This document shows, in pieces, positions 19,304 to 26,742 of a stretch of 64,000 nt of DNA. Source of the DNA: Paenirhodobacter ferrireducens (GTDB taxonomy: Bacteria; Pseudomonadota; Alphaproteobacteria; Rhodobacterales; Rhodobacteraceae); contig NZ_SAVB01000022.1 in the NCBI RefSeq assembly GCF_004022265.1, positions 1-64,000 of the forward strand, read 5' to 3'. The notes under the pieces were generated by a model. That model had not been told where the DNA came from and did not search any database. It saw only the letters and a program-made list of their open reading frames with translations. The position numbers and the translations under genes were made by a program. Positions within the stretch are counted from its first letter, which is position 1. Every line of letters begins with the position of its first letter.

Positions 19304-21505
19304 TCACGCCGGTCTAGGCAGGTTGTAACGGTGCAAGAACCTCTGCGAATAGACGGAACGCGGCGCGGTGACGGCCCTCCAGGCCTCAAGAAATTCTGGC
19401 GGCATCGCCAGATCCGTGGCCGCCCGCAGATGTGGATAGAGCGCGAAAGCCTGCGCCTGAGAATCCGCGGTGACATTCGACAGATAGCGCTCGGCATTGC
19501 CGGTGAAAATGACATCCGGGCGGATCAGCGTCACCATCTCGGGATGCAGGAAACGGGTGCGCAGGCAGATCACGCGGGTAAAGACCATGCTCAGGTGCTG
19601 CAACATCATCCGGAAGAATGAATCGCCGAAGAGCAGGGCAGTCCGGTCATGCGCGGCCTCGGGGCTGATCAGGATATCCACCAGCCCATCGTTGAAACCG
19701 CTCGAATTGCGAAAAGCGGTGACCGGCCAGTCGGGATCGAGGACGACACCATCCTGAAACAGCCGGGGGGTGAATTTGGCGCCAAGATCCCCTGCCCACC
19801 GCTGCGCCTTGACGATCCGCCGTTCCACGCGCGTCAGGCTCTCCTCGGCCTGGATCCCGGTGGCCGAAAGCATCATCCGCAGCACCGCCAGAGATCCATG
19901 ATCGGTCATATGCGTGTCGAGCGGCAGGAAGGGGGCGCGCTGCTCGTCCCGTAACCTGTCCGCCGGATACAGCACATAGGGCCGCAATTCAGGATCGAGG
20001 GGAGCGAGATAGGCATCCCCAAGCCGGTGGACAGGCCCGATCGGAAAGGCTTCCGTCATCACCGATTGCTTGTCAGGAAAGATCACATGGAGATAGGGGA
20101 TCCCCTGGCCGCGCGCGATGCTTGCCCGCTCGGCAAGATTGCCGGCAAAGGTCGCGAGCGAGGTGGGAGTGGGCGCCAGTTTGCCCGTCACATATTGCAA
20201 GACCGAAAGATTGCCGCCGACCAGGAACGCGACGTTATCCTTGGTGAGCAATGCATCACCTTCGATGCGGTAGGCCTTCGACGCCGCATCTGGTTGCGGG
20301 GCCGTTGTGGCGACATCCAGATTTTTCGCGGCAATGGCCTGGGCATAGCGTCCTGTCGTGTCTGCGGCCAGGATCTTCGCGCCGTTCCGCCTGTGGAATT
20401 TCAAGATCTGGTCTGGCAGAAGGTGATTTCCGTTGATGGCTGTCATCAGCGCTTCAAACCAGTGACCTGAAATGCTCCCGGTAGTTAGGCGCTGCTCGAT
20501 CAACCGGATCAACTCATCGGAGTTGCGGGTGAGCAAGGCGAGTTGAAGCAACTGTTGCGTGAAATCTCCGGCGACGAGGGGGGCGTCGCGCAGCTTGACG
20601 AACAGAGCGGCAGCTTCTTCGACCTTACGTGCCCGAACGAGATTTGCGGTGTGGATATGAAGCGTCAGTGTGGCAATTGCAGTCGCTAGCCGCCGGCCAG
20701 AGCGTCGTTCCGACTCCAAAAGCGCTACAGCTTTGCCAGACATCGTGGCCGCACGTTGATGGTTGCCTCTGCGGGAGAGGACACCTGCCGCTCCCGTCAG
20801 GGCAACAGAGGAGCCGCTTCGACGCGAGCGGACGGATTGCAAAAACGCATCCCGGTCAAATCTGCCGGCCAGAACATTTCGAACGGTGTCGCTGAGCAGG
20901 CCGCATTCCAGCAGCATGCGCATGGCCGCATGATCCGAAAACCGCACGGGGATGCAGTGGATGTCGGCGGCAACAGCGGCGATCATGCGTGCGTGCCGAT
21001 CATCTTCGATATGTGCCGGATCATGAAACAGCCAGGTCGGGGTGCTCAGTCCGGCGTCCAGCCAACGATCGTCGAACGTCTTGATCCGGCGCCGATCCGC
21101 CATCCAACGCGGCTCGAAATCGGCGCGGGAAAGATCGACGCTGGCCTGCGGATACATGCTGAGCGCGCCCTCAGCATCGAGCCGGTCGGCGAACATCAGT
21201 GCCCCCGTGCCCCCCATGCTGGCGCCATAGGTCCAGAGCGCGCGCGTGCCCCGCCTGTCCCTGATCGCCTGCAGGACCTCCTCCATTTCGTCCAACTGCC
21301 ACCAGTGGTTCCATTTCGCGACGACATGGAACACGGAGATGCCCGATTTGCGGAAGAACTCCTGGCCAAAGCCTGCATTCGGATGAGCCGGCCCGGGGCG
21401 CGGTGCGCCGAGACGCGGCGAGAAGGTCACCACCACCTGTTCGGACTGATCGATCGGAACAGAGTGCAAGGAAAGGTTGTCATTCTCGAACAGGATGGTG
21501 GTCAT
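19304..21505 (-). CDS. Alpha/beta-hydrolase-like and AlgX-like SGNH two-domain protein
   Basis: The 733-residue protein seems to combine two esterase-type domains. Residues 1-230 look like an alpha/beta hydrolase with a nucleophile elbow GASMGG (S96). Residues about 230-420 are helical, TPR-like. Residues about 430-733 resemble the AlgX/AlgJ SGNH acetyltransferase domain: D530-T-H532 and GDSF with S629, a D-to-S spacing of 99 against about 95 in AlgX. AlgX-type domains O-acetylate exopolysaccharides in the periplasm, but no signal peptide is present here, so the site of action is unclear. ATG 21505 overlaps the upstream small ORF stop by ATGA, implying coupling. It may modify a cell-surface glycan or small molecule made with the neighbouring genes. 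Confidence 0.75.
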   Translation of the reverse strand: MTTILFENDNLSLHSVPIDQSEQVVVTFSPRLGAPRPGPAHPNAGFGQEFFRKSGISVFHVVAKWNHWWQLDEMEEVLQAIRDRRGTRALWTYGASMGGTGALMFADRLDAEGALSMYPQASVDLSRADFEPRWMADRRRIKTFDDRWLDAGLSTPTWLFHDPAHIEDDRHARMIAAVAADIHCIPVRFSDHAAMRMLLECGLLSDTVRNVLAGRFDRDAFLQSVRSRRSGSSVALTGAAGVLSRRGNHQRAATMSGKAVALLESERRSGRRLATAIATLTLHIHTANLVRARKVEEAAALFVKLRDAPLVAGDFTQQLLQLALLTRNSDELIRLIEQRLTTGSISGHWFEALMTAINGNHLLPDQILKFHRRNGAKILAADTTGRYAQAIAAKNLDVATTAPQPDAASKAYRIEGDALLTKDNVAFLVGGNLSVLQYVTGKLAPTPTSLATFAGNLAERASIARGQGIPYLHVIFPDKQSVMTEAFPIGPVHRLGDAYLAPLDPELRPYVLYPADRLRDEQRAPFLPLDTHMTDHGSLAVLRMMLSATGIQAEESLTRVERRIVKAQRWAGDLGAKFTPRLFQDGVVLDPDWPVTAFRNSSGFNDGLVDILISPEAAHDRTALLFGDSFFRMMLQHLSMVFTRVICLRTRFLHPEMVTLIRPDVIFTGNAERYLSNVTADSQAQAFALYPHLRAATDLAMPPEFLEAWRAVTAPRSVYSQRFLHRYNLPRPA

Positions 21506-21813
21506 TGCGCGGCCCCTCCGGTCGCCATGCCAAGGCGCCGGGCGAGTCTTCCGGCGCGCGGCCGATCCTTTCGGCCGGGGACCGGGCGCAACGGGTGCGC
21601 AGAGATCGGGCCACGGGTGCGGGATGCCGGCGCCGCGGCAGGCCGGGACCCGGTGCGGCGCTGGACCCTGCCGGCACGTGCCAGATCGTCCATTTCGCCG
21701 CGGCGGGGGAAGGGGGCGATCGCGATTGCATCCGCCTTTGCCAAAGGCGCGAGGCACCGTGACCGGACCCGGGGAAATACCGCCAGTTCCTTGAAATGAT
21801 CGAGAATATCCAA
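21502..21813 (-). CDS. Small TTG-start ORF coupled to the SGNH gene, unknown function
   Basis: The 103-residue product begins with TTG, but AGGAGGG sits 6 bases upstream, the strongest ribosome-binding site in the area, and its stop overlaps the next start as ATGA. The N-terminus (MDILDHFKELAVFPRVRSR) looks natural; the C-terminal half is Arg/Pro-rich and looks less like a folded protein, so a frame error or leader-peptide role is possible. No family recognised. Confidence 0.45.
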   Translation of the reverse strand: MDILDHFKELAVFPRVRSRCLAPLAKADAIAIAPFPRRGEMDDLARAGRVQRRTGSRPAAAPASRTRGPISAHPLRPVPGRKDRPRAGRLARRLGMATGGAAQ

Positions 21814-25753: not shown

Positions 25754-26742
25754 CGCAGGGCTCCGCGTGCCGCGGCGATCGCCGCCAGAACGGTGCGATC
25801 CGGCGTTGCCTGCCACAGCGCGCAGCCGGCGCCGAGGGTGAAGCCGCGACCCCGCATCCGCGCCAGCAGCCGTGCCGTTTCGGTCGCCATCGTTTCGGCC
25901 GTCAGGCTGGCCAGCTCGGAGGGCGCCATCCCGCCGCTTAGCAAGACCTCGGGCCCGGCCCGCCGCCCCTCGTCGAGTGCGGGGTTGGCGTCGAAGGCAA
26001 AATGGACGGTGGTGCCGGGGAAGGCGTCGAGCAGGGTGGCCGGAAGTCCCTCCCCATGCAGATGCACGACGTTCAGGCTGTCCGGGCCCGCGGCGGCGAG
26101 GCAGCTCAGTCCCTCGGGCAGGCCCATCGTGAAAAAGCTGTCGCCCGGGCTTTCGTGCGCGCCGGCGTGCTGCACCGCAAGGAAGATGCCGTCGACGCCC
26201 GCTTCCCTGAACAGCCCGACGATGCGACGGGTCCGCTCGGTCAGGGCGGCGAGCGCGATGGACAGGGCCTCGGGGCAGTCCCGGCGATGGTCTTGCCAGT
26301 GCGCGCCCGCGAGGATGCGCAGCTGAAACAGCGGGTCGAAGATCGACTGCAGGACCGGGATATGCGCGGGCACGCGGGCGCGGACCAGCCGGGCGGCCTT
26401 GAGATGCTCCGCGAGATGCCGCTCCTCGGGCCGGCTCTCGGCAAGGCGCAGCCAGTCTTCGGCGGTGCTGACCGGGCCGGCGCCGAATATCCGCCGGCCG
26501 ATCGGATCGCCGGTCCAGCTGTCCGTCTGCCCGAGGTCGCGCAGTTGGAAACTCGAGGCGGGGGTGATCTTCACCAGATCGCAGTCGAAGCGGGCCTGAA
26601 AGGCGCAGGTCGCGTCGGCGAGCCGCTCCCCTTGCTGATCCGCAACGGGATGGTGCTGCCAGAACGCGACCGGAACCGCGGCCCCGTGCCTGCCCTGCCT
26701 GGCCTGTTCGACCAGCTCCAGATAGCGCTGTTTCGCCAACAT
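25750..26742 (-). CDS. Uroporphyrinogen decarboxylase-fold protein
   Basis: The 330-residue protein follows the UroD superfamily pattern: an N-terminal VPVAFWQHHPVAD segment, FDCDLVKITPASSFQLRDLG near residues 52-71, and a C-terminal LSGGMAPSELASLTAETMAT barrel end. True HemE decarboxylates uroporphyrinogen III, but relatives are corrinoid methyltransferases or act in natural-product pathways. The coupling by GTGA overlap to the NRPS-like gene and the absence of other haem genes argue against a housekeeping HemE. The substrate is unknown. It is the first gene of the minus-strand set. Confidence 0.75.
   Translation of the reverse strand: MLAKQRYLELVEQARQGRHGAAVPVAFWQHHPVADQQGERLADATCAFQARFDCDLVKITPASSFQLRDLGQTDSWTGDPIGRRIFGAGPVSTAEDWLRLAESRPEERHLAEHLKAARLVRARVPAHIPVLQSIFDPLFQLRILAGAHWQDHRRDCPEALSIALAALTERTRRIVGLFREAGVDGIFLAVQHAGAHESPGDSFFTMGLPEGLSCLAAAGPDSLNVVHLHGEGLPATLLDAFPGTTVHFAFDANPALDEGRRAGPEVLLSGGMAPSELASLTAETMATETARLLARMRGRGFTLGAGCALWQATPDRTVLAAIAAARGALR

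What the first reader, a model, noticed from the sequence alone, without database searches (positions are those of the whole stretch)
19304..26742. Unrecognised biosynthetic set: UroD-fold, NRPS-like with Cys thioesterase, TTG small ORF, hydrolase/AlgX fusion
Four minus-strand genes sit between integrase scars. An NRPS-like protein without condensation domain is translationally coupled to a UroD-fold enzyme, and nearby a 733-residue protein joins an alpha/beta-hydrolase-like domain to an AlgX-like SGNH domain. I know no pathway with this combination. One hypothesis is activation of a carboxylic acid that is transferred to a cell-surface glycan: the Wzt-like C-terminal domain and the AlgX-like domain are both glycan-related. 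The 161-residue secreted gene lies inside the set on the opposite strand.
Basis: partly seen in the sequence, partly recalled or inferred. Interest (0 to 1): 0.75.

Follow-up and report, generated by a model that had tools for sequence, protein, structure and literature searches.

The report
UroD-like enzyme paired with mini-NRPS
Two of the flagged genes form a small mobile operon, seen in three bacterial phyla, that pairs a UroD-fold (MtaA-like) enzyme with a one-module acid-activating synthetase whose product is unknown; the other flagged genes do not belong to it.

Summary
The finding is half right. The UroD-fold gene (25750-26742) and the NRPS-like gene (22940-25753) are a real, translationally coupled pair. 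The same order occurs in a second species of the genus, a Verrucomicrobia MAG and an Emticicia plasmid. The four adenylation domains form one clade (100/98), with an identical ten-residue pocket in three (NGRAYAGTLK) and a close one in the fourth (SGRSYAGTIK). Asn or Ser replaces the residue that normally binds an alpha-amino group, so the substrate is probably not an ordinary amino acid. The pair is accessory and horizontally spread: 80% DNA identity to the second species, against 94-96% for backbone. The rest is not one set. The hydrolase/AlgX protein was not found with the other pairs, and 4 of 5 neighbourhoods of its relatives that I read are polysaccharide clusters. The 161-aa gene lies elsewhere in the second species; the TTG ORF lacks a coding signature. 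I propose that the UroD/MtaA-like enzyme makes or tailors a small acid that the synthetase loads and releases. The product is unknown. Five literature searches showed no description of the pair.

The parts
25750..26742 (-). UroD-fold (MtaA/CmuA-like) enzyme, 330 aa; conserved H227-x-H229...C307 and FWxHHPxxDQ / GRR motifs
   Evidence: Pfam URO-D 9e-12; weak MtaA/CmuA matches below cut-off, no HemE match; motifs
22940..25753 (-). NRPS-like A-T-TE protein with C-terminal extra domain, 937 aa from GTG 25753
   Evidence: Pfam/NCBIfam; alignment with three partners; start inferred from GTGA overlap
25750..25753 (-). GTGA stop/start overlap coupling UroD to NRPS-like gene (same GTGA in G046, ATGA in Verrucomicrobia)
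   Evidence: sequence junctions printed
24242..25684 (-). adenylation domain (about aa 24-504), pocket code NGRAYAGTLK with N212 in place of the amino-binding Asp
24029..24157 (-). carrier (T) domain, Ppant Ser556 in GADSL
   Evidence: PP-binding 18.5 bits, below 20.8 cut-off; serine conserved in four members
23294..23956 (-). thioesterase-like alpha/beta-hydrolase domain (limits approximate), Cys712 (codon 23618-23620) in GGNCQA, His790
22943..23236 (-). extra C-terminal domain of about 98 aa (limit approximate), also on a stand-alone Cys-thioesterase in the same genome; absent from Verrucomicrobia and Emticicia members
26743..26843 (-). upstream stretch also conserved in the second species; holds most of an inverted repeat (26822-26846) that may be an operator
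   Evidence: blastn limit 22944-26843; alignment
19304..21505 (-). NOT part of the pair: 733-aa alpha/beta-hydrolase + AlgX-like protein (GASMGG at aa 94, DTHMTDHG at 530, GDSFF at 627)
22151..22636 (+). NOT part of the pair: 161-aa secreted-looking protein, ortholog 81% on another contig of the second species
21502..21813 (-). TTG 103-aa ORF, probably not a gene
22698..22866 (-). decayed integrase fragment just downstream of the NRPS-like gene
   Evidence: tblastn of the window integrase on the window
17777..18997 (-). tyrosine-type integrase, 406 aa
   Evidence: Pfam arm and central domains, PHROG 1 over residues 14-398

Best explanation
The UroD-fold gene and the NRPS-like gene are one horizontally spread two-gene operon that makes a small molecule. 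Shown: order, strand and tight spacing are kept in four loci of three phyla; the adenylation pocket is the same or nearly so; both genes are under purifying selection. Inferred: the adenylation domain activates a small carboxylic acid that is not an ordinary alpha-amino acid (Asn or Ser replaces the amino-binding Asp; an Arg is fixed at position 239) and loads it on the carrier domain. The thioesterase then takes the acyl group, on Cys712 in this species, and releases it by hydrolysis or by transfer to an acceptor. The UroD-fold enzyme resembles the MtaA/CmuA methyl-coenzyme M methyltransferases, but with His-x-His...Cys where those have a His-Cys-Cys site. I infer that it is a metal-dependent alkyl or methyl transferase (or a decarboxylase) that makes or tailors that acid. 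The hydrolase/AlgX protein, the 161-aa protein and the TTG ORF are separate.
For: Pair in G046 (UroD 83%, NRPS 73%), a Verrucomicrobia MAG (45% and 41%) and Emticicia pEMTOL02 (UroD 25%, A domain about 40%, genes 31 nt apart). 4-nt overlaps in three of four. Pocket code identical in three, SGRSYAGTIK in the fourth; the same position map recovers standard-looking codes such as DVWFISLVDK in other A domains. A-domain clade 100/98, 0 of 500 shuffles as low. FWxHH and the early GRR motif in 4 of 4 paired UroDs, 0 of 4 unpaired relatives have both. 0 of 15 other A-domain loci examined carry a UroD relative. dN/dS 0.104/0.479 and 0.173/0.523. HxH...C in 8 of 8 UroDs aligned. MtaA/CmuA-type profiles are the best NCBIfam matches of the window protein and of the five relatives scanned, all below cut-off. 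Cys at the thioesterase nucleophile in 10 of 10 related thioesterases of the family search.
Against: Only four pairs were found. Over the whole protein, Emticicia UroD is no closer to the other paired UroDs (25-30% identity) than unpaired plasmid UroDs are (23-30%). The Verrucomicrobia thioesterase has Ser, not Cys, and its release chemistry may differ. The substrate is read from a motif only; no structure was usable (pLDDT 36.5 and 41.5). I recognised no corrinoid protein or other methyltransferase partner beside the pair: window neighbours by Pfam, G046 ORFs by eye only, Emticicia by its annotation; the MAG contig was not family-scanned beyond the pair.
Confidence: 0.5

Rival explanations
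1. The UroD-fold gene is only a housekeeping or catabolic enzyme (for carboxylate or methylated substrates) that happens to be co-transcribed with a separate NRPS-like enzyme.
For: Two of four unpaired plasmid relatives sit beside tripartite tricarboxylate transporters; the Emticicia pair lies among catabolic-looking genes such as a fumarylacetoacetate-hydrolase-family and a FAD monooxygenase gene.
Against: Same order and tight spacing in three phyla, and 0 of 15 related A-domain loci examined have a UroD relative.
Confidence: 0.2
2. One reading: all four genes act together to put an activated acid on a cell-surface glycan.
For: Adjacency in this window; the AlgX-like protein looks like the polysaccharide-modification type; the C-terminal extra domain also occurs on a thioesterase in a cluster with a glycosyltransferase-methyltransferase fusion.
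Against: Hydrolase/AlgX protein not found with the pair elsewhere; 161-aa gene separate in G046; extra domain missing from two of four members; decayed integrase between the genes.
Confidence: 0.06
3. The pair is an A-T-TE synthetase of the alpha-keto-acid (furanone/quinone) kind, which joins two acids by its thioesterase, with UroD as tailoring enzyme.
For: Same A-T-TE layout and an A domain that lacks the amino-binding Asp; such synthetases are described in the abstract start of PMC9047271. The Emticicia neighbours include two monooxygenases and a fumarylacetoacetate-hydrolase-family gene, which could act on aromatics.
Against: The pocket carries Arg at 239; no such neighbours were recognised in the window or, by eye, at the G046 locus.
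Confidence: 0.12

Closest known systems
MtaA/MtbA/CmuA-type methylcobamide:thiol methyltransferases (UroD superfamily)
   Same: Best curated profile matches of the UroD-fold protein and its five scanned relatives; a metal-site-like HxH and a C-terminal Cys by motif.
   Different: Scores far below family cut-offs (21.7 against 235.4 bits); His-x-His...Cys instead of the His-Cys-Cys reported for S-methyltransferases (PMC10418091, passages); no corrinoid protein recognised nearby.
Uroporphyrinogen decarboxylase HemE
   Same: Same Pfam family PF01208.
   Different: No match to the hemE equivalog model at E<=0.1; no porphyrin genes recognised beside it in the window.
A-T-TE NRPS-like synthetases (fungal quinone/furanone type; recalled also for bacteria)
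   Same: Adenylation, carrier and thioesterase-like domains without condensation domain; A domain lacking the amino-binding Asp.
   Different: Its own conserved pocket, a Cys thioesterase shared with other proteins of the same taxonomic family, and a fixed UroD-fold partner gene.
AlgX/AlgJ-like SGNH polysaccharide acetyltransferases (for the separate 733-aa protein)
   Same: Weak ALGX match and, as recalled, similar DTHxT and GDS motifs; polysaccharide neighbourhoods in 4 of 5 relatives read.
   Different: Joined to an alpha/beta-hydrolase-like half; below the Pfam cut-off; no polysaccharide genes recognised among the window neighbours scanned.

Membership tests
UroD superfamily (PF01208) | Pfam score above the curated cut-off | tested here: met
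   45.1 bits against 23.9
HemE uroporphyrinogen decarboxylase | match to hemE equivalog model | tested here: not met
   no hemE hit at E<=0.1; of the five relatives scanned only the unpaired Polaromonas one hits it, 19.2 against 302.95 bits
MtaA/CmuA methyltransferases | curated score cut-off | tested here: not met
   21.7 bits against 235.4
MtaA/CmuA methyltransferases | His-Cys-Cys zinc site | tested here: not met
   HxH...C in 8 of 8 UroDs aligned; definition from PMC10418091; register with the Zn site is by motif, not by structure
MtaA/CmuA methyltransferases | methyl transfer from a corrinoid protein | not testable with these tools
   needs biochemistry; no corrinoid partner recognised beside the pair
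NRPS-like A-T-TE synthetase | adenylation domain | tested here: met
   AMP-binding 181.9 bits, cut-off 29.9
NRPS-like A-T-TE synthetase | carrier domain with Ppant serine | tested here: inconclusive
   PP-binding 18.5 bits against 20.8 but Ser in GADSL and conserved in four members
NRPS-like A-T-TE synthetase | thioesterase domain | tested here: inconclusive
   no Pfam hit; sequence matches to two solved chains, 9f7b (deposited as 3-hydroxyacyl-ACP dehydratase, E=6.6e-8) and 7r0x (polyketide synthase, 0.0097); a homologous stand-alone protein hits Thioesterase at 20.6 bits, cut-off 26.4; Cys712 and His790 present
Standard amino-acid-activating A domain | Asp at position 235 | tested here: not met
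   Asn (three members) or Ser (one)
AlgX acetyltransferase (733-aa protein) | Pfam ALGX cut-off | tested here: not met
   14.2 bits against 26.5

The most novel reading that the evidence does not exclude
A new minimal kind of biosynthetic unit: an MtaA-like metalloenzyme of the UroD fold (His-His-Cys type) makes or alkylates a non-amino carboxylic acid that a dedicated one-module synthetase activates and releases, carried between phyla as a self-contained mobile two-gene cassette. It would give the uncharacterised 'HxHG' branch of the UroD superfamily its first role in carrier-bound metabolism.
Probability: 0.3. Interest if true: 0.72.

Novelty: new variant of a known kind. Interest (0 to 1): 0.5.

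Why it matters
One-module NRPS-like enzymes and UroD-fold proteins are both common and, as far as I recall, mostly uncharacterised. A conserved two-gene link gives each a testable partner: the UroD-fold product or substrate should be an acid that fits one defined adenylation pocket. It also adds a candidate pathway that is small enough to express whole, and a possible role for an uncharacterised branch of the UroD superfamily outside haem and methanogen-type metabolism.

Tried and rejected
Four-gene set: rejected. Glycan transfer by the NRPS tail: no Pfam support, and the tail is missing in two of four members. Cobalamin or other riboswitch before the operon: none (the only weak match in the window stretch, PVT1_3 at 17.8 against 45 bits, I take as chance). 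Structure prediction: two jobs gave pLDDT 36.5 and 41.5; no fold search was run on them. PDB sequence search with the UroD-fold protein: no hit at E<=1. Viral contigs: no relatives of the UroD-fold or the 733-aa protein. Broader pair search by UroD profile: 2 of 18 genomes of the genus, 1 of 398 in the phylum sample, 1 of 387 in the Verrucomicrobia sample, the query genomes included; at most 5 first-look candidates per genome were scored, so misses are possible. The species-wide scan uses exact short patterns and reaches close relatives only. A-domain search in the Verrucomicrobia sample: 18 of 387 genomes matched at 1e-52, 19 places, at most 3 candidates scored per genome. I fetched stretches for 15 of the 18 places other than the known pair (14 of 13-15.5 kb, one of 5.3 kb), and none held a UroD relative at E<=1e-3. 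Tree: of the A-domain hits in the 20 loci given, the 28 that span more than 380 query residues were used; shorter ones were dropped, L032 among them. In one search, matches of 150 bases or less were not printed. Literature: five searches showed no paper on this pair. I saw listings with abstract starts; of PMC10418091 the abstract and passages; of PMC5004826, the one paper holding all terms, passages only: it lists a uroporphyrinogen decarboxylase and NRPS clusters of Pseudomonas putida separately. The numbering of the A-domain code, the role of Asp235, the AlgX motifs and the A-T-TE chemistry beyond the abstract start of PMC9047271 are recalled.
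Full report
What is in the sequence. On the minus strand, 26742-25750 encodes a 330-aa protein of the URO-D family (Pfam E=9e-12). Its stop overlaps a GTG start of a 937-aa NRPS-like protein (25753-22940) as GTGA. The longer ORF listed from 25816 begins at an upstream in-frame start. The NRPS-like protein has an adenylation domain (E=2e-53), its C-terminal subdomain, and a carrier domain just below the Pfam cut-off. 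A thioesterase-like region follows, with Cys712 in GGNCQA, then a tail of about 98 residues. A 733-aa protein (19304-21505) joins a hydrolase-like half to an AlgX-like half; its Pfam scores are all under the cut-offs. The TTG ORF at 21502-21813 lacks the GC3-high, GC2-low pattern of its neighbours, has no match in plasmids, and is probably not a gene. An integrase gene (17777-18997) and a decayed copy of its C-terminal part (22698-22866) flank parts of the region.

Which genes belong together. A search with the thioesterase part in 248 genomes of the family matched 8, this one included. Apart from this genome, only one, G046 of the same genus, had a close match (71%). G046 carries both genes side by side (UroD 83%, NRPS 73%) with the same GTGA overlap. 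DNA similarity there runs from 22944 to 26843 and stops, that is, the two genes plus about 100 bases upstream. A scan of one genome per species gave one more relative, a Verrucomicrobia MAG contig (L025), with the same pair joined by an ATGA overlap. Plasmid searches with each protein separately both included Emticicia oligotrophica plasmid pEMTOL02 (Bacteroidota): one of 5 records for UroD, the only record at E<=1e-60 for the NRPS-like protein. There the two genes are neighbours, 31 nt apart. The other 4 plasmid UroD hits had no annotated AMP-binding gene within 7 kb (the plasmid gene table is incomplete). All four paired UroDs share FWxHH and an early GRR motif, and none of the four unpaired ones has both.

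Is the link more than chance? Four pairs in three phyla keep order and strand. The four A domains are one clade in a tree of 32 (support 100/98; 0 of 500 label shuffles as low). Of 15 loci examined around other Verrucomicrobia A-domain hits, none had a UroD relative. Codon comparison of this species with G046 gives dN 0.104, dS 0.479 for UroD and 0.173, 0.523 for the NRPS-like gene, so both are under purifying selection. Against this, by overall identity the Emticicia UroD is no closer to the other paired ones (25-30%) than unpaired relatives are (23-30%).

The pair moves. G046 holds a stretch collinear with window 31797-39596, 46982-51124 and 51203-57725 at 94-96% identity, whereas the pair is 80% identical and sits on another contig in G046. 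It occurs in 2 of 18 genomes of the genus. The cassette was therefore probably gained separately in the two lineages, or moved or exchanged since (inference). In G046 the 161-aa gene, itself only 78% identical in DNA, lies directly beside the stretch that matches window 31797 onward, so the window's 22656-31796 is missing at that place.

What the other genes are. A relative of the 733-aa protein with 52% identity lies in an Alloyangia pacifica plasmid among rhamnan-synthesis, glycosyltransferase and dTDP-rhamnose genes. That protein is 1110 aa, with an extra middle stretch. Four of five neighbourhoods of relatives that I read are polysaccharide clusters; the fifth, in Paracoccus sanguinis, is not. 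These are 5 of 91 plasmid records matched, and three of the five relatives matched the AlgX-like half alone and one the hydrolase half alone. G046 has only separate, 26-29% matches to the halves, and the Verrucomicrobia genome none. The stretches fetched around the pairs in L025, L026 and L037 have none at E<=0.01. The protein is thus best read as a polysaccharide acyl-transfer or editing enzyme stranded beside the pair (inference).

How the pair may work. By the position map tested (it returns standard-looking codes in ordinary A domains), the pocket reads NGRAYAGTLK in this species, G046 and the MAG, and SGRSYAGTIK in Emticicia. The usual amino-binding Asp is Asn or Ser, so an ordinary alpha-amino acid is unlikely; the fixed Arg at 239 may meet a second acid group (inference). 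The sister group in the tree also lacks the Asp in its five members. The thioesterase belongs to a local family: the 10 other hits of the family search all have Cys at the nucleophile, 9 of them in a G-[GA]-N-C-Q motif. Emticicia also has Cys (GNCSG), but the MAG has Ser, so the release chemistry need not be identical. The UroD-fold protein and five relatives match MtaA/CmuA methyltransferase models best, far below cut-off. All eight aligned UroDs have His-x-His...Cys, where S-methyltransferases of the superfamily are described as His-Cys-Cys with zinc (PMC10418091, passages). A metal-dependent alkyl transfer or related step on the acid is the most likely role; decarboxylation is the alternative. 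None of the chemistry is shown.

Novelty. Five literature searches showed no description of the pair (passages of one term-matching paper read). Each part is of a known kind; the fixed combination appears to be undescribed. The main limits are few members, no usable structure, and no product.

Noticed in passing
window 1534-11839: Prophage-like end: tape-measure-like protein, tail fibre proteins, phage lysozyme, Arc-like repressor and Rha/Ant antirepressor.
   Followed up: partly
G000 contig C38 about 157600-166700 (L027 17587-19901, L028 255-6776): Another orphan cluster in the same genome: stand-alone Cys-thioesterase with the same C-terminal tail, CmcI-type methyltransferase, glycosyltransferase-TylF fusion, P450, AMP-ligase and radical SAM/SPASM protein.
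   Followed up: partly
window 26822-26846: Inverted repeat about 80 bases before the UroD-fold gene, GGTGGC/GCCACC, partly conserved in the second species; possible operator.
   Followed up: no
L039 7004-11061 and L041 7124-11092: Unpaired relatives of the UroD-fold protein sit beside tripartite tricarboxylate transporter genes and near octopine/nopaline-dehydrogenase-like genes in Gemmobacter and Microvirga plasmids.
   Followed up: no
window 39597-46981 and G046 C50 164947-168278: Two further insertion/deletion differences between the two species in an otherwise 94-96% identical stretch.
   Followed up: no
window 28048-29301: Di-haem MauG/CcP-like peroxidase inside the variable stretch; matches at 51-57% in 13 of the 17 other genomes of the genus at E<=1e-60, not in G046.
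   Followed up: partly
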